44,023 nucleotides of DNA, taken from IMG/VR virus record IMGVR_UViG_3300021477_000013, positions 1-44,023 of that record; one strand, given 5' to 3'. Of the stretch, positions 321-42,448 are shown one piece after another; the first letter of the stretch is position 1; each line of letters begins with the position of its first letter. The stretch is from a virus. The position numbers and the translations under genes were made by a program. The notes under the pieces were generated by a model, which was not told the origin of the DNA, made no database searches, and was given only the letters and a program-made list of their open reading frames with translations.

Positions 321-2819
321 TCAGAACTTCGATCCGAACCTGCTCGATCCCTTCCACTTAGCAACCTTCGTCCCATCGTGGGTATTAGGCCCAAAATCAC
401 CGGGGCCAAACTCGAACCTTGGGGCAATGTCGACTCCGATTGCCTCGCCGAATTTCTCGGTAAGAGTGCCGATATGCCACTTGAATCTCCTCTGTATCCC
501 CTTGCCCTTTATAGTGACCAATTCCAACATGCCTAAAGTGTCAAATTCGGTGAGAACGGACCTAGGATTAGTATTGATGTTAAGCGTCTTAATCAACTCG
601 CTAACGGATCGCATGAAGTCTACATCAACAAATGGCGTGGAGATGTCTAAATCTTCCAATATCGCCCCGTTCTCGACAATAAACTTAGCTACCTTGCGGG
701 GGTTGCTCATGTTGCTGGCTACGATATCTGGATCGCTTGAAGACGATAGCCTCAGACTTTCAAGATTATGTCGGTTTACGGGGATATGCTGGAATATCTG
801 CTGGTAATGCTCCCGCGTCGAATCCTCGGTAAGGAAGTCAGCGAATTCGTCGAAGAACGTCTTGTGGGTGAGCGTCCATCTGTTAAATTCCTGCTGGCTC
901 GTCCCCATAAATTCGGGGGTGTAAGCTTTGGTGAAGAATAGCGCTCGATCCACCGTGTTCGATTCACTGATGCGAACGTCCATGTTGTTGCTGGCAAACA
1001 TGAGCCGCGCGTAGATGTTGTAGTCGCGCGAATCCAGTCCCTTTTGCTCGCCGTGGGTCTGGACGTTTCGAATGAGCAGCTTTAATTCGTCGATGGCGTT
1101 GTGGCTTTTAAACTTAACTTCATCAGCGAACACAAACATCTTGCCCATGAATGGCGATACACTAAATCTCTCACCAATTTGCTTACCGTTGACCATCCCG
1201 TAAGATCGTCCAAACAGAGACTTGGCGAAAGCAGTGCCGATGAATGATTTACCGACGCCCTGTCCGCCCACAACTACCCAAGCGATCTGTTGTTTCTCGC
1301 CTGGGTGTTGGATTGTCCATCCGAACCACTCTTTGATCCACTGAGCCTGCTCGCGATTGTTGCATGTGAGCCACGCCAGAACTTTATCAAGCTTCTCCTC
1401 ACATTGCTTAAGCTTCGGTATATTTACCGTGGTCGGCGGCTTGTGGTCCCAATCAGTCCAATGATTGTAAATCAAGCGAGCTTCCCCCTCATAATCCTCC
1501 CCGACGAATTTGCCGGATCGAGTTACACGGAATATGCTGAGGGGTTCCTGTTGCGGATAAAGATCGGCGCTGCCAACTCGAACGCGCATCTTGCTCATTT
1601 CAAACGATTTGAAAGCTTCCTTAGGCTTGCCTCCTAACATAATTACGTCCGACTTATGGCGGCGATACAAATCCTCTGCGGAGTGGGCATAAGGCCAATC
1701 TCCTCGCTTATGGCGGTATCTATCAATATAAAGCCCGTTGGAATCGTCATAGACATATTGCTCAACCAGTTGCATCAATACGTTCGTATCAGTTCCGGGG
1801 GCGCAGATGGCCCGCAGCGCGGCCACAATCTCCTCACCGAATAGAGCTTTCATTGACGGCCAGCCCGGAATGCGGGCATCGGGATTTCGGCTCAGTTTGT
1901 CGCGCGCATCCTTGTAGGTGCGCTTGCGCATGTAGGCTTCGTCGTCGCTAGTCTCGCGACAAATGAAGTCGAGGAGGGACTGAGCAATATCATCATGATC
2001 AATGGGGCAGTGAACTTCCTGAGACAGCTGCTCACTGTTGTTGATCGCGAAGCTTTCATCAACGATGCGGGCTAACCATCCGTTGAATTTGAGGGCTGTG
2101 TCTTGCCGGATGCCGGGAACCCACTGTGGCTTGATGAGGTAGAGGATGGTTCCGAAAGCAATTGCTCTAATAAGCCAATTAAACGGTGTAGCTCTTGGGC
2201 TTGTTTGAGTAAGTTCTCCGAGAGACTTAGCGATTCGTCCCCTATCGGTCCACCAGACTGAAACATCCACTCCATCTCTATCTCCATAGAGTGAACCAGG
2301 AACTACGGTCTGTTTTGCGTCATCGGACGATTCTGTGCCGGAGCGAATGTCAGTGTAGAACCGCTGGTTCCGAATACGGATGGCCTTGGGCTCGAACTGC
2401 TTAAACTCATCAAACGATCTCGATTCTTCTTCCGACAGCTGCACCAGAAAGTGACGGGGCACACCGGCGCTCTTACGGCCAAACGCGAGGCGGCAATCTA
2501 CGCCTACGTGTTGCATGGCCAAATGTATGCACTTGTTGTATTCGGTGTCGTCGCCGTCAACGTCAATGTCAACCCAACCCTGCTGCAGGTTGAACCCGAC
2601 GTTGGAGAACCGGTAGAGTTCATTGTCAATCCAATCCCGCAAGTCGGTGTCGAGGTACTTACTTGCAGACCAATTGTCGTTGACGGGAACCTTCGAAGTT
2701 GGGCGGAGGTAAACCGCCCCCACCTTTACAATATCGCGGTTAACGAGAGTCGTAATAGCCCTTTGCTCGTTTATCCCCACCCAATCGTCGGGCGATAACA
2801 GGCTCAACTGTTCTGTCAT
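321..2819 (-). CDS. AEP primase-polymerase / SF3 (D5-like) helicase fusion
   Basis: An 832-residue replication protein. The N-terminal part (about 1-200) resembles archaeo-eukaryotic primase (prim-pol) domains: a metal-binding D-I-D-V-D at residues 84-88 and a GRKSAGVPRH motif ending at His123. The C-terminal half is a superfamily 3 / D5-type AAA+ helicase with Walker A GGQGVGKS (518-525) and Walker B MFVFADE (561-567). Such fusions prime and unwind phage DNA at the fork. Starts at ATG 2819-2817 with AAGGA five bases upstream; that site lies in a leader stem (2820-2926). It is alone behind its own promoter at 2934-2962. A second polymerase (37563-39335) is the likely main replicase. The domain call is firm; which activities persist is not known. 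Confidence 0.88.
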   Translation of the reverse strand: MTEQLSLLSPDDWVGINEQRAITTLVNRDIVKVGAVYLRPTSKVPVNDNWSASKYLDTDLRDWIDNELYRFSNVGFNLQQGWVDIDVDGDDTEYNKCIHLAMQHVGVDCRLAFGRKSAGVPRHFLVQLSEEESRSFDEFKQFEPKAIRIRNQRFYTDIRSGTESSDDAKQTVVPGSLYGDRDGVDVSVWWTDRGRIAKSLGELTQTSPRATPFNWLIRAIAFGTILYLIKPQWVPGIRQDTALKFNGWLARIVDESFAINNSEQLSQEVHCPIDHDDIAQSLLDFICRETSDDEAYMRKRTYKDARDKLSRNPDARIPGWPSMKALFGEEIVAALRAICAPGTDTNVLMQLVEQYVYDDSNGLYIDRYRHKRGDWPYAHSAEDLYRRHKSDVIMLGGKPKEAFKSFEMSKMRVRVGSADLYPQQEPLSIFRVTRSGKFVGEDYEGEARLIYNHWTDWDHKPPTTVNIPKLKQCEEKLDKVLAWLTCNNREQAQWIKEWFGWTIQHPGEKQQIAWVVVGGQGVGKSFIGTAFAKSLFGRSYGMVNGKQIGERFSVSPFMGKMFVFADEVKFKSHNAIDELKLLIRNVQTHGEQKGLDSRDYNIYARLMFASNNMDVRISESNTVDRALFFTKAYTPEFMGTSQQEFNRWTLTHKTFFDEFADFLTEDSTREHYQQIFQHIPVNRHNLESLRLSSSSDPDIVASNMSNPRKVAKFIVENGAILEDLDISTPFVDVDFMRSVSELIKTLNINTNPRSVLTEFDTLGMLELVTIKGKGIQRRFKWHIGTLTEKFGEAIGVDIAPRFEFGPGDFGPNTHDGTKVAKWKGSSRFGSKF

Positions 2820-32643: not shown

Positions 32644-32827
32644 GGTTCATCTCTACACATTTTTTACAGTAGGATTCCCAGTTAACTTTGCTTACATTGA
32701 GAAGGCTGAATTCCAAATTCGGCCAGTGGCCTCGCCATAACCCGATTATGTCGCCACAAATCCACTCAATGGCCCACGCGCTTCCGCCTGCCGTGAGCCA
32801 AATATGATCGTCATGTTGCTCCGTCAC
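32579..32827 (-). CDS. small hypothetical protein with CxxC
   Basis: 82 residues from GTG 32827-32825, overlapping the helicase stop (GTGA). Trp-rich N-terminal half (HIWLTAGGSAWAIEWICGDI) and a YCKKCVEMN segment. Its last 20 residues overlap the next gene in another frame. Unrecognised. Confidence 0.5.
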   Translation of the reverse strand: MTEQHDDHIWLTAGGSAWAIEWICGDIIGLWRGHWPNLEFSLLNVSKVNWESYCKKCVEMNHAGYGLGNQGREENTGAPNGT

Positions 32828-34227
32828 GCTGGGACCGCCTTCCTTATGTGGGCGAAGATCGCTTTGAAAATAGATTCTTTACGCTGAAGCGCTCGAATGA
32901 CATTTCGATCCATGCTAGTCCCGCAAAGATCGATATAGTTGACCGAATTAGCATCCTGTCCGCGACGATGATTCCGGTCTTCAACTTGCGAGCGATCGTC
33001 GAGAGAATAGCTATTCTCAAAGAAGATGGTGGTGGAACATCGATTTCCAGGACCCGGACTACCCAAAAGTGTGTGGCCGTACTTTCCGGCTCGCTCTTGT
33101 ACCAGAATGATACGACAGGATGGGTTCTCGTTGAATTTTCGCTTTTGTTCATCGACTTCATCGGGTTTCATGCCCCCTGTGATTCGGGCGGGGTTAAACT
33201 CCTTTAACGCTTCACTCAAGATTTCGAACGTATATCGGTGAATATAGACGACGATAGCCTTGCCGGGAACCTCGTCGCGCAGAATGTCCAGCAACGTCAG
33301 GACGCGGGGATTCTTGTGCGGTTCACAGATAACTGTCACCTTCGATTCGTTGTCGGTATCGATGATGAACCCGCACTGAATTTGGGCCAGCTTTCCATAT
33401 TTCGTGATCGCCGCGTCCACCGTGACGAATTCGTCGTCGTTCATCCAGAGAACGAAGTCCTTTTCCATGCTCCGATATTGGGCGCGCTGTTCTTTCGTCA
33501 TCTCGTATTCGCGGGTCGTGTACACCTTGGGGATACTGAACAGCCAATCCTCTTTGGTAGCCCGGAATACATGTGGTTCGATAAGCTTCGCGAGGATGTC
33601 CTCATTCTGGGAGCCTATGACTTGCTTATTTTTGAACCCGCCCATCCGACAAAACATACCACGGAACGCGTAAAAATTGCGTCCATCCAGTTGGCCGATA
33701 GCTCGCATTTGAGCCCATAAGTCATGAGGCCCCTGAGCCGTCGGCTTTCCGGTGAGGATACGTCTGACAACTGCCTGCCGCGATAAGGATATAGCCGCCT
33801 TACTCTGTATCGCGTCATGAGTCTTAATCTGGATGCTTTCGTCAAGTGCGATGTAGGTGGGCTTCCGAGCCATCCAATCAAGAAGCTTAGTATGAATGGC
33901 TGGACTACGGATTGCTTCGTAGTTGATAATAAGTAAAGGCGGACGCTCATAACGTCGTCCAATAAAACGGTCGCTGTCAAACGTACCGCTCTGGAAGATG
34001 TGAGTTTCAAAGTCAAAGCCGTGCTTTTCGACTTCTTCGGCCCATCCGCCTTTGAAGGTATTGGGACATACCGCGACCATTCTAGTAGTGCCATCTGCAA
34101 TCCCCCTTTGGAACTCAGTTAACGCTGTTAACGTCTTCCCTAAGCCCATCTCCATGAAGAATCCGAATCCATGCCTACCCTTCGAGGCTTCGAGCGCGGC
34201 GATCTGGACTGGATCAAGAGTGCTCAT
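32824..34227 (-). CDS. SNF2/SF2-type DNA-dependent ATPase (helicase)
   Basis: 467 residues. Walker A MGLGKT (27-32); a DEAH-like box ALDES (127-131) followed by IQIKTHDA, as in SNF2 proteins; motif VI DRSQVEDRNHRRGQ near residue 415. It is a superfamily 2 ATPase that translocates on or remodels DNA; in phages such proteins assist replication or recombination. It overlaps the upstream small gene by 14 bases and is followed by a GTGA-coupled gene. Confidence 0.88.
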   Translation of the reverse strand: MSTLDPVQIAALEASKGRHGFGFFMEMGLGKTLTALTEFQRGIADGTTRMVAVCPNTFKGGWAEEVEKHGFDFETHIFQSGTFDSDRFIGRRYERPPLLIINYEAIRSPAIHTKLLDWMARKPTYIALDESIQIKTHDAIQSKAAISLSRQAVVRRILTGKPTAQGPHDLWAQMRAIGQLDGRNFYAFRGMFCRMGGFKNKQVIGSQNEDILAKLIEPHVFRATKEDWLFSIPKVYTTREYEMTKEQRAQYRSMEKDFVLWMNDDEFVTVDAAITKYGKLAQIQCGFIIDTDNESKVTVICEPHKNPRVLTLLDILRDEVPGKAIVVYIHRYTFEILSEALKEFNPARITGGMKPDEVDEQKRKFNENPSCRIILVQERAGKYGHTLLGSPGPGNRCSTTIFFENSYSLDDRSQVEDRNHRRGQDANSVNYIDLCGTSMDRNVIRALQRKESIFKAIFAHIRKAVPA

Positions 34228-34432: not shown

Positions 34433-34595
34433 CTTCTGCCCCGGTTCTCCTCAGCCAATCCCGTAGCTCCTCTTTATCATTCGGATCGTCTTGGTCTGCG
34501 ATCCATTGGCAGGTTAGGCATCTCTTGCGAACGATGCCGAGAGCGTCGTAAACCTCGGAGCTACAATCTGTACAGATATAGGTCGGTTCATCCAT
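34425..34595 (-). CDS. small zinc-ribbon protein, 56 residues
   Basis: Starts at ATG 34595-34593 after GGGAGGG, overlapping the MazZ stop (TAATG). CTDC at 8-11 and CLTC at 26-29 are likely zinc ligands; the rest is acidic (DQDDPNDKEELRDWLR). Located immediately downstream of mazZ in the same operon. Function unknown. Confidence 0.65.
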   Translation of the reverse strand: MDEPTYICTDCSSEVYDALGIVRKRCLTCQWIADQDDPNDKEELRDWLRRTGAEDE

Positions 34596-34927
34596 TAGTC
34601 CCTCCCGTCGATCGCCATTGCGCACAAAATGAGAGCCATATTCGCCACGTCGGCAGCTTCGAGAACTATCTCTACGGTGTTCTTTCCCTCCTCAATGGCG
34701 CTGGCTAGTTCTGTGACTTCTTCCCGAAGGTGGTTCATGTATTCGACGACCCGCCCGTGTTCCCACTTTCCCTTGTGGGAATTCTTGCGCAGCTTGTAGA
34801 TCATCGCATCGAACATGCGCCTCATATCATGTTCATACGCTCGAAGCTCCGGCGGAATCTTGATCGTCAACTTGCTCCACTCTAGGCCCATGCCCGAAGA
34901 TAAATTTGTAATTCGCTCCGAGGACAT
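34595..34927 (-). CDS. mazZ: MazZ-like nucleotide pyrophosphohydrolase (MazG/DUF550 fold)
   Basis: 110 residues by the longest frame; the domain resembles DUF550/MazG proteins. The Mg-binding acids are in EEVTE (69-73) and EAADVAN (90-96, Glu90 and Asp93), with NSHKGKW (49-55) before them. In Z-genome phages this class converts dGTP to dGMP, supplying the substrate of PurZ. It overlaps the end of purZ by 95 bases if started at ATG 34927 (AGGA upstream). Later ATGs (34891, 34825) would shorten the overlap, so the true start is uncertain. No long linker or second domain is present. Confidence 0.85.
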   Translation of the reverse strand: MSSERITNLSSGMGLEWSKLTIKIPPELRAYEHDMRRMFDAMIYKLRKNSHKGKWEHGRVVEYMNHLREEVTELASAIEEGKNTVEIVLEAADVANMALILCAMAIDGRD

Positions 34928-35888
34928 CTCTAGTATTCCTGTGCTTTTTGTAAAAGTCCAGTTGCTCTAGGGTATTCAGATAGTTCATGAAGTTTAAGAA
35001 TACATGCGTCGGGTCGTTCGCTGTCACCGAATCCTTGAACTGGTTCCAGCTGAACGTAGCGACGCGGCGCACCCGCTTGGTTACGGTTGTATATTCGGTG
35101 GGAACGCCTACCGTATCCCAGTCGGTTTCATATTGATCAGTGTACCAATCCCCACTGCTGAACCCATCGGCATTTCCTACCCGGATGGGGTAGGTCCGGA
35201 AACACAGATAGCCCCTTTTGTAGTATGTCGGCGGGAGACGGGCGTCAGCCATTCCCTGCATGAACGTACATTCGCGGCTGGTTACGTGTGGATAAAATTT
35301 GGCCTCGTTTAATCCCAACGAGAACCCTTGAGAAATCTCCATAAAATACGGGTGATATTCCAGGTCGACAATATTCTCATAGTAAGGAAATAACCGATGG
35401 GAGTGATTGTAATAAATGGCAGAAGGATCACGGCGAACCTTTCTAGAAATTGCCGCGCCGGTTCCTGAACGTGTTCCAGCAACAGCGAATATACTGCCAG
35501 AGGTATCATTCTCTGTCACCCTATCCTTTTCGAGGATTACCGTCGCGCAGGGATGAATGAATATAGGGATGTCCGGAAATTCTAAGTGTTCCTTGATCAG
35601 CAATTCGGCGTCGATAGTTGCCCCTGCCGAAAAGTATACCGGAATGGTATGGCCTCGCAGATGCATGTGAACCGCGAAGGTGGGCAGTTGTTTTAGAACG
35701 ATCTTAGTTTCCCTGAAATAACTGGTGTGTCCGCTATTCGGCCCCGCGCTTGTGATGCAGCCGTTGAATGGGATTACTTCTATAATAGCGCGCTTGGCGA
35801 GCCAAGAAGCGATCAGCCCCTTCCCCTCTGAACCATATTGGCCTCCGGCGAGGATATGGAGGCCAGTGTCAGTGAATAGAGTGCTCAC
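34833..35888 (-). CDS. purZ: PurZ, 2-amino-deoxyadenylosuccinate synthetase
   Basis: 351 residues, homologous to adenylosuccinate synthetases. The P-loop-like start GGQYGSEGKG (15-24) has Ser20 where host PurA has the catalytic Asp (GDEGKGK); this replacement marks PurZ. GPNSGHT (49-55) and the GTRSGTGAA segment (138-146) are further family motifs, with RTYPIRVGN and ETDWDTVGVPTEYTTVTKR later in the sequence. PurZ joins dGMP and aspartate (ATP-driven) to give 2-amino-deoxyadenylosuccinate; host enzymes finish dZTP. ATG 35888 overlaps the preceding stop. Confidence 0.93.
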   Translation of the reverse strand: MSTLFTDTGLHILAGGQYGSEGKGLIASWLAKRAIIEVIPFNGCITSAGPNSGHTSYFRETKIVLKQLPTFAVHMHLRGHTIPVYFSAGATIDAELLIKEHLEFPDIPIFIHPCATVILEKDRVTENDTSGSIFAVAGTRSGTGAAISRKVRRDPSAIYYNHSHRLFPYYENIVDLEYHPYFMEISQGFSLGLNEAKFYPHVTSRECTFMQGMADARLPPTYYKRGYLCFRTYPIRVGNADGFSSGDWYTDQYETDWDTVGVPTEYTTVTKRVRRVATFSWNQFKDSVTANDPTHVFLNFMNYLNTLEQLDFYKKHRNTRDVLGANYKFIFGHGPRVEQVDDQDSAGASSV

Positions 35889-36097
35889 TTCATCATTTCC
35901 TTGAGCTTGTTGATGGCTGCTTGCCTCTCATCCAAGGGTTGGGGCGGCGGTGCAACTGGCACCGCCGCTTTGATTATAAATCGGTTGGCAGACCCACATT
36001 GTTGAGGCCAGGGGTATTTCCACGTGTGGAATCGATGACATGCCTCTGCCGGGGTGGTTATCAGCGTTATTAAGGCCAATCCGGCTAGTCTTTTCAT
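35885..36097 (-). CDS. small exported protein with signal peptide
   Basis: 70 residues. MKRLAGLALITLITTPAEA is a typical signal peptide; cleavage is likely after AEA. The mature part has CHRFHTWKYPWPQQCG, with two Cys that may form a disulfide, then a Pro-rich helix. It would act in the periplasm. Encoded between PurZ and the DUF6378 gene with four-base overlaps. Role unknown. Confidence 0.7.
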   Translation of the reverse strand: MKRLAGLALITLITTPAEACHRFHTWKYPWPQQCGSANRFIIKAAVPVAPPPQPLDERQAAINKLKEMMK

Positions 36098-36474
36098 TCG
36101 GCGGCCTTTCGCGATCGGATTTCGTCGAATAAGCCGCCGCCGGTTGGCTTCATTATTTCTTGCTTAGGCGCGGCTACCATTCCTGCGAGCGCAGTGTAAC
36201 CCGCGTCGTCTGCGAAATTGTCGCGATTGACATCGATTGCGTAGACAAACCGAGCCTTCTTAAGCAGGGACATCATTTCCAACACGTCAACTGCATCGAT
36301 TTGCAGCAGAATCGAGGGGTTCTTGTGCCTCGAATAGTTCGCGTGGCGGAGGTAAACCTCCCACATCTGCGCCACCATCGAATACGAGTTGTCTACGTCG
36401 CCGTGAATGTCTCGGCCTCCACCGACCGCCTGACTTGCGTCTTCCAGGATATCAACTGCTGTTGTGTTTCCCAC
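36094..36474 (-). CDS. DUF6378-like phage protein
   Basis: 126 residues. The pattern ILEDASQAVGGGRDIHGDVD, SYSMVAQMWEVYLRHAN, DVLEMMSLLKKARFVYAIDV and DNFADDAGYTALAG matches small phage proteins grouped as DUF6378. Function unknown. In the same operon as the exported protein and purZ, with overlapping codons. Confidence 0.75.
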   Translation of the reverse strand: MGNTTAVDILEDASQAVGGGRDIHGDVDNSYSMVAQMWEVYLRHANYSRHKNPSILLQIDAVDVLEMMSLLKKARFVYAIDVNRDNFADDAGYTALAGMVAAPKQEIMKPTGGGLFDEIRSRKAAE

Positions 36475-36838
36475 GTAACCACTCCTCTATTGTTCCGGCG
36501 TAATTCGCACCACTTGGCTGCTTAAACGCCTTGGTGATGAATGCCTCTCTGCCCCAATCCGCGATGTACATTACTTGGCTGCGCCATCCTATCAACACCG
36601 GGAACGCTATACCTTTTGCCTCGATGACTCGGATGCCTTCCACGTATTGTCTCTCGGACGGGGCGAATTTGAGACCATCCGTCACTTTGCCCTCGACAAA
36701 TAGGGTGGGATAACCAGTCGGCACGATGGTGATATCCAGAATGCCTACGCCGTATCCGTCTTCTATTCGCCGAGCATACCAACCCCTTGCCTTACATTGT
36801 TTCACAAGCTCGGTCTTGAGGATGGATTCTTCGCTCAA
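36452..36838 (-). CDS. VRR-NUC-like PD-(D/E)XK nuclease
   Basis: About 128 residues from TTG 36838-36836, which overlaps the upstream TGA (TTGA) with AAAGGA upstream; no in-frame ATG is well placed. Likely active-site residues: Asp35 (GVGILDITIV), Glu49 and Lys51 (FVEGKVTD), with a Gln64-containing helix (SERQYVEG) after. These fit the VRR-NUC branch, which cuts branched or flapped DNA. A replication or recombination role is likely. It overlaps the DUF6378 gene by 23 bases. Confidence 0.78.
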   Translation of the reverse strand: MSEESILKTELVKQCKARGWYARRIEDGYGVGILDITIVPTGYPTLFVEGKVTDGLKFAPSERQYVEGIRVIEAKGIAFPVLIGWRSQVMYIADWGREAFITKAFKQPSGANYAGTIEEWLRGKHNSS

Positions 36839-37053
36839 TGGATTGGCATGTCCTTTGCTGGTTCGCCGTCGATCGTCTCCAACATGTGCAACAACATGTC
36901 GCGACCTATTACACATTTCGCCCATGTGTTATCGTTTCCATCGAGAAGCATCACGTGCAAGTGATCGCATCCCCCGCACTTGTAGTAGCTCGTTGCGATG
37001 GCTGTTGGCGCGTCGTTTGGGTCTTCGAATGGTGCCCCGTCTTCATGTTCCAT
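36835..37053 (-). CDS. small acidic protein with CxxC
   Basis: 72 residues from ATG 37053-37051, overlapping the upstream stop (TGATG). Acidic N-terminus (MEHEDGAPFEDPNDAPT), then YYKCGGCDHLHVMLLDGN. One CxxC and a His could form half a zinc site. Unrecognised. Confidence 0.6.
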   Translation of the reverse strand: MEHEDGAPFEDPNDAPTAIATSYYKCGGCDHLHVMLLDGNDNTWAKCVIGRDMLLHMLETIDGEPAKDMPIH

Positions 37054-37301: not shown

Positions 37302-37570
37302 CTATCTTTTGCGCCTCGTACCAACCCAATCATATTTATAGCATGAACTACGTCGATGTCGCCTGCGATGTCTTCCATCTCTTTATCGCTAGGATTACGC
37401 AATTTATCGCCATCATATATTGCGACATGTGAACAATAGAAGCATATTGCCACATCCCCATCCTCCGGAGGGCGGCTCTTTGCGTTGGTTACGTCCATCG
37501 CCGCACTCATGGATTTATTGCAATTAGGGCAGAAACACTCAGGTCTTCTGAACGCTTCGATTCTAGCCAT
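37298..37570 (-). CDS. small zinc-ribbon protein downstream of the polymerase
   Basis: 90 residues from ATG 37570-37568 (GGAGGC upstream). CPNC near residue 14 and CFYC near 43 give a zinc ribbon; the C-terminal segment is helical (DIDVVHAINMIGLVRGAKD). It overlaps the polymerase stop by eight bases, and its TGA lies in the next promoter's -35. Unknown function. Confidence 0.65.
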   Translation of the reverse strand: MARIEAFRRPECFCPNCNKSMSAAMDVTNAKSRPPEDGDVAICFYCSHVAIYDGDKLRNPSDKEMEDIAGDIDVVHAINMIGLVRGAKDS

Positions 37571-39335
37571 AGGAAGCCTCCGCCCAATTAGTTCCAGTTC
37601 CGACCTCATAAGGAATAGGTAGACCGAGTTTAAATTCATCCGGGACCGCCTCGCAGACTTTTATCAATTCGGTGGTGTCGAATCCGATCTCGCGCTGCCA
37701 AATCAACGAATCGTGGATGGTCATTAGTAACTGTACCTGCGGATGAGCTTCCTCGTATTCGGAGGCGCGCAGGAGAGTTGTCTTCATCAAGTCGCCGCCG
37801 GAATTCTGTATGATTCGGCTCACCGCTCGATAAGCGTATGCTTTATCCTCTAGACGAGCCTTGCGGCCAGTGATCGACCTGACGTAGCCGCTCGATAAGA
37901 ATATGCCCTTCGCTTCTTTTTGGAACTTGAGAATGGCGGGGAATTGACCTTTCAGCCACGCCTGATGATAGTTCAACGCTCGATTGTAGTCCCAACCCAT
38001 ATGACCTGCCAACGCTTTAGCTGACATGCCTGTTAGGATTCCCATGGCCATTCGTTTAGCGATATCTCGGTGCAATCCCAGACCAGCGGAAGTGATGTCG
38101 TGGATGTCCATAGTTCCGGAGCGGTATCCCTGAAGTAATCGCTCATCTTCTGAGAAATATGCAAACAATCTAGGCTCTTGCTGTTTGGCGTCGCCTTCCT
38201 GAATCTCGAAACCGTCATCAGCAATGATGAGTCTTCTGACGGTTTTCCCGACTTCTTTATTTCGTTTTGGGAACGCTTGAAGATTCGGCTCAGAACAGCT
38301 AAATCGCGCTCCGATTGCACCGTAGTCGTCAGATTTAGATTGATTGAGTACAGGATGAACTCGTCCCTTAACATTATGCGTCTCCACAAGCGGCGTGACG
38401 AACGAATCCCGAGCTTTTTTCATCTGCCTTATGCCGATAATTCTTTCGCCAATTTCGTTATTTTTCAGCCATCCTTCGGTGAAGGATACGGCCCCATTCT
38501 GGGTGCGTGCGAAGTCATCGTCCCCGAACCCCTCACGACGATAAAGACTCTCAACGTCTTTCGGTGAGTTGGTATTGAAACCATATGGAAACGTCGATTG
38601 GATCGCGGCAATTTTGGTCTCGATGATTCCGTTCGGTCCTCTGAGTTGTTGACCATATTCGCCATCCACTTTCATCCCGCGTCGATGGAGACGCGCCACT
38701 CGATGAATTAGCTGACATTCCAGCTTCCAAGGAGTCCTCAATTCGTGTTCGTCTAGCAGCTTCTGCTGCGCCTCCCACAGCTCTAAAGTGGATATCCCGT
38801 CACCCGTAGCGTAATCCACAACGTCAGGATGATCGCCAGCCATCTTGTAAAAGTTAGCCATTGTCTTGCGGTTTGGCATACCGCCAAATTTCGCCGCGAT
38901 TGCCCGATAAAGAGCATCGCCAAGCTTAGCAGTAACACCATGGCGTTGGCTACAATCATCGAGTCCATACCCAGAAGTGACATCGCTGATAAGCCCCTCA
39001 TTTATCATGGTATCTTCCAAGGGGTACTCCGGAAATACGCCGTGTTTTCCCGCCATGCGCAGGTCGAAACCCAGAGCGTGACCGACCGTAAGGAAGCCGC
39101 GCCGAGCGCGAGTCTTGAATGCGAGACCCAAAACTCTCTCGAACTCCCCTGAATGAAGTATGTTTCCTCCACCAACATGGCCGGTGGGAACGTAGACGCT
39201 CGCATAGCGGTCTGTAAACACCCAACCCACAACAGTATCATGAATTGTCAATCCCGTTGTTTCTGTATCGAACGCCATCACAGAAGAGTGTTGCACCATA
39301 TCGATGGCGCGTTGCGGATCAATTCCCTGATACAT
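37563..39335 (-). CDS. family A DNA polymerase with 3'-5' exonuclease (DpoZ candidate)
   Basis: 590 residues from ATG 39335-39333 (GGAGACTAAA). Exonuclease motifs: FDTET (22-26), GHALGFD (85-91) and YATGD (175-179). Polymerase motifs: A with Asp382 (EGDAKQQEPR), B from Arg423 and Lys427, C with His541-Asp542. Unusual residues: relative to E. coli Pol I, the O-helix Phe762 is Met431 and Tyr766 is Thr435, and the Glu after the motif C Asp is Ser543. In Z-genome phages a proofreading family A polymerase (DpoZ) favours Z over A. Co-occurrence with purZ and mazZ supports that, but the substrate preference is inferred. Confidence 0.85.
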   Translation of the reverse strand: MYQGIDPQRAIDMVQHSSVMAFDTETTGLTIHDTVVGWVFTDRYASVYVPTGHVGGGNILHSGEFERVLGLAFKTRARRGFLTVGHALGFDLRMAGKHGVFPEYPLEDTMINEGLISDVTSGYGLDDCSQRHGVTAKLGDALYRAIAAKFGGMPNRKTMANFYKMAGDHPDVVDYATGDGISTLELWEAQQKLLDEHELRTPWKLECQLIHRVARLHRRGMKVDGEYGQQLRGPNGIIETKIAAIQSTFPYGFNTNSPKDVESLYRREGFGDDDFARTQNGAVSFTEGWLKNNEIGERIIGIRQMKKARDSFVTPLVETHNVKGRVHPVLNQSKSDDYGAIGARFSCSEPNLQAFPKRNKEVGKTVRRLIIADDGFEIQEGDAKQQEPRLFAYFSEDERLLQGYRSGTMDIHDITSAGLGLHRDIAKRMAMGILTGMSAKALAGHMGWDYNRALNYHQAWLKGQFPAILKFQKEAKGIFLSSGYVRSITGRKARLEDKAYAYRAVSRIIQNSGGDLMKTTLLRASEYEEAHPQVQLLMTIHDSLIWQREIGFDTTELIKVCEAVPDEFKLGLPIPYEVGTGTNWAEASYG

Positions 39336-39422: not shown

Positions 39423-40259
39423 CTAGAACTTTGTATTCGCGTCTCGGTGCACCGGTTGCGCCCTCCCATTCGTTGAGGGCGGGTCGTCTCCTGTCCGCTC
39501 GTCGTTGGCGCGGAATGCCACGTCTTTGTACTGCTCGAACATCGATCGGGCGACTTCGCCGTCGCTCTCGTCTGCGTATCCCAGACTCTTGTAGTTAAAG
39601 TTGAAGTACGAGTTATTCTCGGGACCCTTGTCGGTGACCACCCCTATCGAATACAGTTGGAAGAAATGGTCCACAGGCTTAGCGTCGATCAGCGACAAGA
39701 GCCGCTGGCACTGCTTCACCGACCCCCGCGAATTGAGGATAATGGAGGGGCCGAGGTCCATTCTCTCTGGGAATAGCCAGAGAATTTCGTATGTGAGCGC
39801 GGCGGCAGGAGGCGAATTGGGGTCGTCATCCCTCTGCGTGCCGAACTGGTCGAGTTTTGATTCGGCGACAGTCGGGGCAAGCCTCCAGGTATAGGTTCGC
39901 GGATTCTTGGAGAACTTCACCTGGAATTCGCCCTCGGGCGGGTCCCACTTGATGCCGTCGCGCGACCGCGCCAGAATGCCGCGCTCGTCTCCTCTTGGTG
40001 CCCACAATACGTAGGTCTTGCGGAGGACCAGAGGAATTCCGATGAGTTCCTTACCCATCGATTCGTTGAGGATTGTGTGCCAGAACTCCCCTGCTTTGGC
40101 ATTCTCGTTTTCCTCAACTTCCGGGGAGACGGAAGCGAGGAGTTTGATGCGCGGAATTACCAGATCGGAGCGGTCGAAATTACCGAATCGCTCGGTCTTA
40201 ACTTTACCCACCAGATATTCAGGTAGGGCGTTGCTTCGGAATGGGATTACGTCGGCCAT
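39423..40259 (-). CDS. replication-region protein of unknown function (possibly ssDNA-associated)
   Basis: 278 residues. Pattern LVIPRIKLLASVSPEVEENE, AGEFWHTIL, LVLRKTYVLWAPRGDERGIL is known to me from phage proteins placed next to polymerase and recombination genes, sometimes annotated as ssDNA-binding-like. Beta-rich core, acidic or polar C-terminus (DDPPSTNGRAQPVHRDANT), as in ssDNA-binding proteins. Starts at ATG 40259; the next gene ends three bases before. Function remains unproven. Confidence 0.6.
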   Translation of the reverse strand: MADVIPFRSNALPEYLVGKVKTERFGNFDRSDLVIPRIKLLASVSPEVEENENAKAGEFWHTILNESMGKELIGIPLVLRKTYVLWAPRGDERGILARSRDGIKWDPPEGEFQVKFSKNPRTYTWRLAPTVAESKLDQFGTQRDDDPNSPPAAALTYEILWLFPERMDLGPSIILNSRGSVKQCQRLLSLIDAKPVDHFFQLYSIGVVTDKGPENNSYFNFNYKSLGYADESDGEVARSMFEQYKDVAFRANDERTGDDPPSTNGRAQPVHRDANTKF

Positions 40260-40261
40260 GA

Positions 40262-40759
40262 CTACACCTTTGTGATTGACGTGTATGGACGCAGAGTAGT
40301 AGTGAACAAGTCAGTCGGCAGTTCGCGTGCGTGCGTTTCGACCTCGCTCTTAGCGAATGAGGCCAGGGTTTGTGCGTTGATCGTTTCGATGATGATGCCA
40401 CCGTTTCCGGTGTCTCGGAGCCATTCGAAACTCTCCGGCTTCTTGCCGTCGACTATCGAGCAGCCCCATTTATACGCAACATTGACACGCCCGACACCAT
40501 CCACGGTTACTGTCTTGATGCCGGAGCGCTTGAACGCATCGGGTACATCCTCGTGGGACAAATGATCTTCTAGGTCGTCCAGTGCCTTACGCGCTTTCTT
40601 GATGTTTTCGGTGACCCCACGAAGTTCTGCGTAGTGCTTGATCAGAGGGATCAAATCACCCGCGCCGACGAATTGTTGGGTGTCGGCGATTACGCGCCTC
40701 GTCGCCTCTTCCAAGGAGAGGACTACTTGGCTAAGTACTAATTGTGTCATTGCTTGCAT
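40262..40759 (-). CDS. conserved replication-region protein of unknown function
   Basis: 165 residues. A helical N-terminal half (residues 15-70) is followed by a compact beta domain: VTVDGVGRVNVAYKWGCSIV, FEWLRDTGNGGIIIETINAQ, and a LRPYTSITK end. This arrangement recurs next to phage recombination/SSB-type genes. ATG 40759 (GAGGTG upstream) is the first gene of the polymerase operon. Function unknown. Confidence 0.65.
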   Translation of the reverse strand: MQAMTQLVLSQVVLSLEEATRRVIADTQQFVGAGDLIPLIKHYAELRGVTENIKKARKALDDLEDHLSHEDVPDAFKRSGIKTVTVDGVGRVNVAYKWGCSIVDGKKPESFEWLRDTGNGGIIIETINAQTLASFAKSEVETHARELPTDLFTTTLRPYTSITKV

Positions 40760-40917: not shown

Positions 40918-41508
40918 TTAGCCCAAGTTCAGATCGGTTCTACGTCGGCTAGAGCCGAACATACTGAGCATCCCGAACCCTGCAATCAGCATCGCCCAAG
41001 TCGAAAGCTCGGGAGTTGCCGCCGCACCGACCCCGCTCACTCCTGTCACCGTTCCATCGATAGCGAGATGAATCGGCGATGAGCCGCTCATGCCCGCAAG
41101 TTCGGTGAAGTAGGTGCCCGCCGCAAGCACGTCGGGATTAAGCTCGGCGCTTTGGCCTCCCGGCGTATTGACAAGAGGCGTGCTTTCGAGGAGCGCACCA
41201 GCCGGAATGAACAAAGGCCCAGGCCCGATCGAGGTTTCAGTGTTGAGCGAAAGCACGCCGTCAACAATTTTGAGGCTGTTGCTGAAAGCGCTATCACTCA
41301 TCGAAACGCTGACGGTTTCGGTGGTCGGCAACGTGAACTCGAAGAATTCCGAGAACCCGATACCAGAACCCGGTGACGATTCGGCGGGGAGCGCGAGGCT
41401 CTCGTTAAGAATCGAACCGACGTCCTGAACGTCAATAAGGGTTGCTGCTCCTACTGGATTCGCGCCGATCGCAGCCAAGATCGTCGCGCCCAACAATATA
41501 CTTTTCAT
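40918..41508 (-). CDS. secreted protein with PEP-CTERM-like sorting tail
   Basis: 196 residues. Signal peptide MKSILLGATILAAIGANPVG (1-20), a beta-rich mature domain of about 140 residues with no Cys, and a C-terminal module: PELSTWAML (from 166), a hydrophobic span (IAGFGMLSMFG) and Arg-Arg-Arg. Signal peptide, PEP-like motif, one span and basic end are the tripartite PEP-CTERM signal read by host exosortase. It is a single-gene unit from its own promoter. PEP-CTERM proteins are exported surface or matrix proteins; in a phage this suggests host-surface modification, or a captured host gene. Unusual in a virus. Confidence 0.75.
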   Translation of the reverse strand: MKSILLGATILAAIGANPVGAATLIDVQDVGSILNESLALPAESSPGSGIGFSEFFEFTLPTTETVSVSMSDSAFSNSLKIVDGVLSLNTETSIGPGPLFIPAGALLESTPLVNTPGGQSAELNPDVLAAGTYFTELAGMSGSSPIHLAIDGTVTGVSGVGAAATPELSTWAMLIAGFGMLSMFGSSRRRTDLNLG

Positions 41509-41655: not shown

Positions 41656-42240
41656 TTATCGGCCCAGACGAGACTTCGGCTGGGGTGTTGGCGGCTGCGG
41701 AAGCCCTTGATCGGGATGCTCACTTCCTTCTTCCGGAGGCAAGCCTTGATCAGGCGCAGGCGGAGAGATTTCAATCACGATGTAACGATACCCGACGCCT
41801 TGAATGGCGGCGAGAACTAACGCTTTGCCAGTCGGCGCGGCTCCGGGAGGAAGAGGCGGCCAAACCGTGCCGGGGGGCGGATCGGTCGGGGGAAGAGGAT
41901 GTCCCGCGATTGGGGGAAGTCCTTGATCCGGACCGATTGGCCAAACCGGAAGCTGTCCCGGCTGCTCTTCACCGACGCCGTACTCCGGATCGGTTGGGCG
42001 ACCGGGGCGGGATGGAAGATGGCCGGGGCGAGGAGGACGGCCCTGACCGAATCCGGGGTCAACCGGACGGCCTGGACGAGCCGGAAGATGGCCTGGGTGT
42101 CCCGGTGAACCCGGAAATCCAGGCAATCCTTGATCGGGGCCTGCGCCTTCGTCAATCCCATAATCGGGATCACCCCCTCCGCCGCCGAATCCCGGCCGTT
42201 CAACCGGGGTAATGTATGCTAGATAACCTGATCTGGGCAT
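41656..42240 (-). CDS. proline/glycine-rich protein with PDQGLP repeats
   Basis: 194 residues from ATG 42240-42238 (GGAGAG upstream). A short N-terminus (MPRSGYLAYITPVE) is followed by long Pro/Gly/Asp-rich sequence with repeats of PDQGLP and GHPGHLPARPGRP type, and a folded-looking insert (KALVLAAIQGVGYRYIVIEI, about residues 144-163). Such sequence occurs in several phage proteins near tail or structural genes. A virion surface or fibre-associated role is possible. Frames on the plus strand here are shadows of this repeat. Confidence 0.65.
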   Translation of the reverse strand: MPRSGYLAYITPVERPGFGGGGGDPDYGIDEGAGPDQGLPGFPGSPGHPGHLPARPGRPVDPGFGQGRPPRPGHLPSRPGRPTDPEYGVGEEQPGQLPVWPIGPDQGLPPIAGHPLPPTDPPPGTVWPPLPPGAAPTGKALVLAAIQGVGYRYIVIEISPPAPDQGLPPEEGSEHPDQGLPQPPTPQPKSRLGR

Positions 42241-42258
42241 TGCTTCTCTCCTAGACAC

Positions 42259-42274
42259 CGCCAAATTCGGCGGA
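42259..42274 (-). terminator. short GC hairpin after the DUF6496 gene
   Basis: CCGCC, 6-base loop, GGCGG directly after the stop codon at 42275. Weak; may reduce read-through. Confidence 0.35.
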
Positions 42275-42448
42275 TTACTTGCGGCGGCGACCCTTCTCAG
42301 GGTACTTACCGCCATGTTTCTTCTCTGTCGCCTTCTCGCTGAGCATGATGGCGACGGCTTGTTTTTGGCTCTTAACGACCGGCCCCTTCTTGGAGCCGGA
42401 GTGGAGCTTGCCTTTTCCCCACTTACTCATTACCTCGCTGGACGGCAT
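42275..42448 (-). CDS. DUF6496-like small basic protein
   Basis: 57 residues from ATG 42448-42446 (GGAGCG upstream). Sequence contains SKWGKGKLHSGSKKGPVVK, then QKQAVAIMLSEK and a Lys/Arg-rich end. KGKLHSGS...V.S..QA.AI.LSE is the DUF6496 pattern seen in phages and bacteria. Very basic, so possibly nucleic-acid-binding; function unknown. Confidence 0.75.
   Translation of the reverse strand: MPSSEVMSKWGKGKLHSGSKKGPVVKSQKQAVAIMLSEKATEKKHGGKYPEKGRRRK

What the first reader, a model, noticed from the sequence alone, without database searches (positions are those of the whole stretch)
37563..39335. Family A polymerase with altered O-helix and motif C in a putative Z-DNA phage
Seen: exonuclease motifs intact; relative to E. 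coli Pol I, Phe762 becomes Met431, Tyr766 becomes Thr435, and the Glu of HDE becomes Ser543. These positions touch the incoming nucleotide, template base and metal site. Inference: the changes may serve discrimination for Z over A (DpoZ function). Whether characterised DpoZ share them I cannot check here.
Basis: partly seen in the sequence, partly recalled or inferred. Interest (0 to 1): 0.82.

Follow-up and report, generated by a model that had tools for sequence, protein, structure and literature searches.

The report
Phage polymerase adapted to Z-DNA
This phage carries a DNA polymerase from a little-described family found in viruses that appear to replace adenine with 2-aminoadenine, and one active-site amino acid of that family tracks the presence of the aminoadenine-making gene, so the open question of how such polymerases prefer the odd base can be tested at a single position.

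Summary
In detail: window 39335..37563 (minus strand, 590 aa) is a family A polymerase with intact exonuclease motifs and Met431, Thr435, Ser543 at the E. coli F762, Y766, E883 positions. The phage encodes PurZ with the diagnostic Ser and a MazZ-like protein; no DatZ was found. Nearest named relative: Ochrobactrum phage OH, 55%. Among 271 non-redundant viral polymerases, 0 of 112 from purZ loci keep Tyr766 (Thr 81, Ser 2, Phe 29), against 146 of 159 others. Inside this clade, 766 is the only one of 555 testable columns separating 83 purZ+ from 9 purZ- polymerases; three nested purZ- lineages carry Asn or Tyr there. F762 and E883 changes are not purZ-specific. This is a third DpoZ-type lineage, with Thr/Ser where known DpoZ have Phe and without phiVC8 insertions 2 and 3. 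Z-over-A preference is inferred, not measured. In a published simulation the equivalent Tyr-to-Ser change puts a hydroxyl on a template purine's 2-amino group, the group that distinguishes Z from A.

The parts
37563..39335 (-). family A DNA polymerase with 3'-5' exonuclease, 590 aa (DpoZ-type, OH-like lineage)
38043..38045 (-). codon ATG, Met431 = E. coli F762 position
38031..38033 (-). codon ACA, Thr435 = E. coli Y766 position; the residue that tracks purZ
37707..37709 (-). codon of Ser543 = E. coli E883 position (HDS instead of HDE)
34833..35888 (-). purZ, 2-amino-deoxyadenylosuccinate synthetase, GGQYGSEGKG with Ser at the PurA Asp13 position
   Evidence: PF00709 2.7e-19, phrog_1211 9.3e-49, alignment A4
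34595..34927 (-). MazZ/MazG-like nucleotide pyrophosphohydrolase, 43% to the OH phage MazG
   Evidence: Pfam scores just under cut-off
36094..36474 (-). DUF6378 protein; present in purZ+ and purZ- relatives alike
36452..36925 (-). nuclease-like protein (weak)
   Evidence: phrog_93 E 0.0022
32824..34227 (-). SNF2-type helicase closing the replication block
39423..40259 (-). Pam3 gp34-like protein upstream of the polymerase
40262..40759 (-). Pam3 gp33-like protein (DUF7307)
321..2819 (-). primase-helicase with weak Prim-Pol N-terminal match, 45% to OH phage 'DNA primase-polymerase'

Best explanation
This is the proofreading family A polymerase of a phage that encodes the dZTP pathway gene purZ, and it belongs to a third DpoZ-type lineage (OH-like), sister to the phiVC8-like one. 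Shown: purZ in the same genome; purZ linkage across the lineage; Thr/Ser at the Y766 position tracking purZ, with Asn or Tyr in lineages without purZ. Inferred: the polymerase copies a Z-containing genome and Thr/Ser766 is its adaptation. Likely mechanism (inferred): Y766 normally bounds the template side of the nascent base-pair pocket and helps hold the fingers closed; a small hydroxyl residue there (a) removes a steric and closing contact, so that three-hydrogen-bond Z:T and G:C pairs reach the closed state more easily than two-bond A:T, whose primer end is passed to the intact exonuclease, and (b) lets the hydroxyl contact the minor-groove 2-amino group carried by Z and G but not by A.
For: purZ with the diagnostic Ser and a MazZ-like gene adjacent. 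0 Tyr in 112 purZ+ versus 146 Tyr in 159 purZ-; 4 further purZ+ all Thr. Position 435 has the highest mutual information with purZ of all window columns (0.834, next 0.695) and is the only one of 555 testable columns with disjoint residues in 83 purZ+ and 9 purZ- clade members, the clade being defined on a tree built without the three columns. Tree: L043 nested at 99/99, L102+L325+L326 at 100/100, L249+L208+L257 joined to the Met/Leu-Thr rows at 98/99 (sister place of the Gln-Thr group 82/90, weaker). AU test rejects one clade of purZ+ Thr/Ser rows (p = 5e-66) and one clade of the Asn rows (p = 0.00036). The PurZ tree has the same major groups, so purZ was mostly inherited with the polymerase and lost. 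Y766 is a pocket and fingers-closing residue and Y766A loosens the closed state (PMC4882331 passages). In simulations of Bacillus Pol I Y714S the Ser hydroxyl bonds the template dG 2-NH2 for 92% of the run (PMC12756729). phiVC8 DpoZ preference was attributed to base-pair-strength-sensitive backtracking (PMC8599892).
Against: No enzyme of this lineage has been assayed here or in the papers seen, and no genome of it has been shown to contain Z. Only four independent phylogenetic pairs are informative (4 concordant, 0 discordant, 3 ties; p = 0.125). Non-Tyr at 766 alone is not a purZ mark: 7 purZ- rows have Phe and 4 have Asn. The simulated Ser contact is in a wobble G:T pair, and the Tyr-to-Ser change in Klenow favours the G:T mismatch, which a Z phage would have to tolerate. 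Y766F keeps the closed state in simulation, so the Phe of known DpoZ cannot work by the same loosening. Relatives with DatZ also have Thr766, so the residue is not a simple substitute for DatZ.
Confidence: 0.6

Rival explanations
1. Thr766 adapts the enzyme to reading a Z-containing template (every template A is Z) and extending past it, not to selecting dZTP; exclusion of dATP is left to nucleotide-pool enzymes.
For: The Y766 side chain stacks on the template base in the binary complex and the simulated Ser contact is to the template purine. S-2L shows that a polymerase without Z preference suffices when DatZ removes dATP (PMC8342488 passages).
Against: The window phage and 14 other purZ+ records of the 35 searched show no DatZ, some of them fragments, so something else must keep A out; DUF6378 could, but it is also in purZ- relatives.
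Confidence: 0.25
2. The association is only shared ancestry: one clade happens to carry both Thr766 and purZ.
For: Most purZ+ Thr rows are one radiation; the sign test on independent pairs does not reach 0.05. Mutual information is not corrected for relatedness.
Against: Three nested purZ- lineages differ at this residue each time, in a tree that rejects a single purZ+ clade, and no other of 555 columns does so. The same position is altered, to Phe, in both known DpoZ clades.
Confidence: 0.1
3. The PrimPol-like primase is the genome replicase and this polymerase is accessory, as PrimPol is the sole polymerase in S-2L; the Thr is drift in a dispensable gene.
For: Primase with weak Prim-Pol match and 45% identity to the OH primase-polymerase.
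Against: Catalytic and exonuclease residues are conserved across the lineage, Thr/Ser is held in 83 of 83 purZ+ clade members, and phage Wayne also has a primase/polymerase/helicase beside its PolA, a clade reported to be Z-selective (PMC8599892).
Confidence: 0.1
4. The F762M and E883S changes, or the three together, are the Z determinants.
For: Both lie in the active site; Ser883 also occurs in phiVC8.
Against: 762 is M, L, Q or F and 883 is S, A, D or E in purZ+ phages; Leu762 and Ser/Ala883 occur in purZ- phages; the phiVC8 paper notes the Ser583-type residue in T5.
Confidence: 0.08

Closest known systems
Ochrobactrum phage vB_OspP_OH DNA polymerase I (phiOH_p28)
   Same: 55% identity over the whole length, same gene block (primase-polymerase, pol, purZ, mazG, helicase); Met762, Ser883
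   Different: Ser instead of Thr at 766; OH has a DatZ homologue (annotated 5'-nucleotidase), none found in the window. The passages of its paper that I saw mention adenylosuccinate synthase; '2-aminoadenine' and 'diaminopurine' occur 0 times in the main text (PMC7139368)
phiVC8-like DpoZ (PDB 7pbk)
   Same: fold (Foldseek E 1.1e-31, VIA Z 35.3); sister clade; Ser at 883; Arg/Met pair aligned to exonuclease helix E2 residues R161/M165
   Different: about 26% identity; Thr not Phe at 766, Met not Leu at 762, Ser not Gly at the G548 position; insertions 2 and 3 absent
Wayne-like DpoZ
   Same: family A polymerase beside purZ, no helix-O insertion, Ser at 883
   Different: Phe at both 762 and 766; long branch, not placed near the window clade; dUTPase-like gene instead of datZ
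E. coli / Bacillus Pol I with Y766S or Y714S
   Same: same position, small hydroxyl side chain; PDB 3hpo is Y714S with a G:T mismatch
   Different: laboratory mutants, ordinary DNA, favouring the G:T mismatch

Membership tests
family A DNA polymerase (PolA) | DNA_pol_A domain over gathering cut-off and catalytic D705/E710/H881/D882 equivalents | tested here: met
   PF00476 147.2 bits vs cut-off 34.3; D382, E387, H541, D542 in 86 of 86 clade rows
family A DNA polymerase (PolA) | 3'-5' exonuclease motif residues | tested here: met
   D23, E25, D91, Y175, D179; the Pfam exonuclease model itself scores 19.0, under its cut-off 23.6
DpoZ (functional definition) | prefers dZTP over dATP | not testable with these tools
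   needs an enzyme assay
DpoZ (genomic definition) | encoded in a phage with purZ | tested here: met
phiVC8-like DpoZ | Phe at the Y766 position (F459), the one mark shared by both known clades | tested here: not met
   Thr435
phiVC8-like DpoZ | insertions 2 (helix O) and 3 (between O1 and P) | tested here: not met
   22 against 29 and 14 against 33 residues in the compared stretches
phiVC8-like DpoZ | falls inside the clade of phiVC8 polymerase | tested here: not met
   window lies in a separate 38-row clade (100/100), sister to the 15-row phiVC8-like clade (100/100); purZ- rows such as L209 and L346 fall on the window's side
Wayne-like DpoZ | groups with Wayne polymerase | tested here: inconclusive
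   Wayne is a long branch, placed beside a mycobacteriophage row or near the root
PurZ (for the neighbour gene) | Ser in place of PurA Asp13 | tested here: met
   GGQYGSEGKG, S20 invariant in A4; the Ser criterion as reported in PMC12884076

The most novel reading that the evidence does not exclude
Position 766 is the evolutionary switch for Z genomes in family A polymerases: in the OH-like lineage Thr/Ser there reads the minor-groove 2-amino group directly, it is lost (to Asn, one base step away, or Tyr) each time a phage gives up purZ, and phiVC8-like and Wayne-like enzymes reached the same site independently through Phe. Exchanging this one residue would shift Z/A preference.
Probability: 0.3. 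Interest if true: 0.85.

Novelty: new variant of a known kind. Interest (0 to 1): 0.64.

Why it matters
How DpoZ prefers Z was left open by the structural study, which concluded that no single mutation is likely to explain it (PMC8599892). A third lineage with a different residue at the same position, and natural pairs of relatives with and without purZ that differ there (window or L032 against L043; L091 against L102, L325, L326), turns this into a one-residue experiment with evolutionary controls. It also bears on polymerases for fully Z-substituted DNA, and shows that much of the diversity of PurZ-linked polymerases seen here lies in uncultivated phages outside the named ones.

Tried and rejected
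F762M and E883S as Z determinants: rejected by their distribution. Thr766 as a replacement for DatZ: rejected, since OH, L046, L070, L095, L204 and others have both a Thr/Ser766 polymerase and DatZ. DUF6378 as a Z-specific gene: rejected, present in purZ- L043 and L102. A single purZ+ clade and a single Asn766 clade: rejected by AU tests. A first within-clade column scan chose its purZ+ rows by Thr/Ser766 and was circular; it was replaced, which takes clade membership from a tree without that column; the result was the same.

Led nowhere: the scan of bacterial and archaeal genome contigs found no relative by tblastn (125 pattern matches, 0 relatives), so no host was inferred. No solved structure matched the primase by sequence. 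The fold listings show nothing closer than Klenow-type enzymes and 7pbk; that absence is no test.

Rows dropped: bacterial contig L025 filed under phages; partial or repeated loci L022, L098-L101, L179, L180, L245; rows identical in the core region were merged (339 to 271). L065 was counted as purZ+ because its contig ends in the start of purZ. L004 and L071 (Thr, contigs end before purZ) stand as purZ- and were left out. For most other purZ- rows only the fetched locus was searched; whole records were searched for 40, 35 and 7 records, with some purZ+ among the last. L208 and L411 lie on short contigs, so their purZ status is unknown, yet L208 is one of the 9 purZ- rows. L359, a member of the Gln762 group with Leu at 766, has no purZ on its 52,816-base contig, but the contig ends just after the polymerase, so it is unresolved. 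Most purZ- rows are metagenomic and may be incomplete. The 40 rows are not in the counts.

Full report
What is there. The finding's coordinates hold a 590-residue open frame on the minus strand, ATG at 39335, stop at 37563. It is a family A polymerase (PF00476, 147 bits) with a 3'-5' exonuclease domain. AlphaFold2 on an alignment of 46 sequences gives mean pLDDT 94.2, and the closest solved folds are vibriophage phiVC8 DpoZ (7pbk, Foldseek E 1.1e-31; VIA Z 35.3 over 562 residues) and the Klenow, mycobacterial, Bacillus and Taq fragments (VIA Z about 35-37).

Genome context. The window is a 44,023-base virus record. Next to the polymerase lie purZ (PF00709; PHROG 2-aminooxy adenylosuccinate synthetase) with Ser at the PurA Asp13 position, a MazG-like protein, a DUF6378 protein and an SNF2 helicase. 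A primase at the other end is 45% identical to the 'primase-polymerase' of Ochrobactrum phage OH. A profile of ten DatZ proteins finds DatZ in 13 of 35 records searched, but not in the window. Of the 60 best phage records listed (of 1506 with a match), only the two records of phage OH exceed 30% identity, at 55%; OH has the same block plus DatZ, annotated 5'-nucleotidase.

Comparison with described DpoZ. In phiVC8 DpoZ the same three positions are L455, F459 and S583. Its authors say that F459 is the only mark shared by the phiVC8-like and Wayne-like clades, that the other residues occur in phages without the Z genes, and that a single mutation is unlikely to explain specificity (PMC8599892: abstract, two of three parts of Results, Discussion). 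The window enzyme has neither F459 nor insertions 2 and 3, but keeps S583 and the Arg/Met pair of exonuclease helix E2. A 2026 paper describes two DpoZ groups, matching PurZ0 and PurZ (PMC12884076: abstract, introduction, two Results sections, passages). Its main text does not contain 'Ochrobactrum'; its supplements were not read, and the original Science report on DpoZ (recalled, not seen) is not among the papers found, so OH may appear there.

Survey. Seven scans of IMG/VR plus named phages gave 339 polymerase rows, 271 after merging identical ones. At the Y766 position, 112 purZ+ rows have Thr 81, Ser 2, Phe 29, Tyr 0; 159 purZ- rows have Tyr 146, Phe 7, Asn 4, Thr 2. The two purZ- Thr rows are contigs cut off just before purZ. 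An eighth scan added 40 rows: 4 purZ+, all Thr; 36 without purZ in the locus, of which 33 Tyr, one Asn (L411), one Leu (L359) and one lacking the region (L408) by the motifs printed. The F762 position is M, L, Q or F in purZ+ rows, and E883 is S, A, D or E. Of all window columns, 435 has the highest mutual information with purZ (0.834; next 0.695), a measure not corrected for relatedness. The sample consists of relatives found with this family's own sequence patterns, so it is not a random sample of phage polymerases.

Tree. With the three columns removed, a careful tree of 61 rows puts the window in a 38-row clade (100/100) sister to the phiVC8-like clade. In it: a Gln762-Thr766 group of 12 (purZ+); L249, L208, L257 (no purZ found, Tyr); L332, L204, L333 (purZ+, Thr); L102, L325, L326 (purZ-, Asn); L091, L103, OH, the window and others (purZ+, Thr or Ser); and L043 (purZ-, Asn) beside the window's own subclade (99/99). 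L209 and L346 (purZ-, Tyr) attach at the base. The data reject one clade of all purZ+ Thr/Ser rows (AU p = 5e-66) and one clade of the four Asn rows (p = 0.00036); these groups were named after the tree was seen. The PurZ tree has the same major groups, so loss of purZ in the nested lineages is the simpler reading; the direction is inferred. Whole-record profile searches found no PurZ in L043 (44,213 bases), L102 (41,190), L325/L186 (45,282), L326 (44,628), L249 (64,330), L257 (66,357), L209 (70,466) or L346/L220 (59,852); in L043 DUF6378 and the helicase, which flank purZ and mazZ in the window, overlap directly. Clade membership taken from a FastTree of all 271 rows without the three columns gives 83 purZ+ and 9 purZ- rows; of 555 testable columns only 435 has no residue in common between them. 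Independent pairs: 4 of 7 go the same way, 0 the other, 3 tie, p = 0.125, too few for significance. All four Asn codons are AAC, one step from Thr ACC and from Tyr TAC.

Mechanism. Shown: linkage and covariation. From the literature: in Pol I, Y766 blocks the insertion site in the binary complex, pairs with E710 in the closed complex, and in simulation Y766A loosens the closed fingers while Y766F does not (PMC4882331, passages). In Bacillus Pol I the equivalent Tyr714 sets pocket volume, and in the Y714S mutant the Ser hydroxyl bonds the 2-NH2 of template G for 92% of the simulation (PMC12756729, one section and passages). Z carries the same 2-amino group; A does not. Inferred: Thr/Ser766 opens the pocket and weakens closing, so that two-bond A:T pairs fail more often and go to the exonuclease (the backtracking model proposed for phiVC8), and it can touch the 2-amino group. 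Template reading and dNTP selection cannot be told apart here.

Verdict. The polymerase is best called a DpoZ-type enzyme by genome context and by the change at position 766, not a member of the phiVC8-like clade, and membership in the Wayne-like clade is not shown. None of the papers listed that I opened describes Thr or Ser at this position in a Z phage; those searches cover open-licence papers only.

Noticed in passing
window 1-44023, both ends: About 28 bases near the start (from about base 5, CGCCACTTTCTCC...) recur at the very end, so the contig probably overlaps itself and may be a complete genome.
   Followed up: no
window 40918-41508 (-): Protein ending in PELSTWAMLIAGFGMLSMFGSSRRR..., which looks like a PEP-CTERM sorting signal (motif recalled, not searched); odd in a phage and a possible host hint.
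   Followed up: no
L043 9974-17200: Close relative with the same polymerase - nuclease - DUF6378 - helicase order but without purZ and mazZ between DUF6378 and the helicase; Asn at 766.
   Followed up: yes
L060 and L095: The usually invariant triphosphate-binding Arg (R754 position) aligns with Tyr (QEYDKAKRMAMG).
   Followed up: no
L345/L216 3434-7293: phiVC8-like polymerase with Phe766 and the helix-O insertion but no purZ on its 18,983-base contig; a deoxynucleotide monophosphate kinase-like gene follows instead.
   Followed up: partly
L247, L248, L250-L255, L335-L342: A diverse purZ+ polymerase group with Gln at 762 and Thr at 766, on contigs up to about 60 kb.
   Followed up: partly
window 1-44023; contigs of L008, L032, L088, L091, L069: purZ+ phages in which no DatZ was found although sister phages have it; what removes dATP there is unknown.
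   Followed up: partly
window 41656-42315 (-): Pro/Gly-rich repetitive protein.
   Followed up: no
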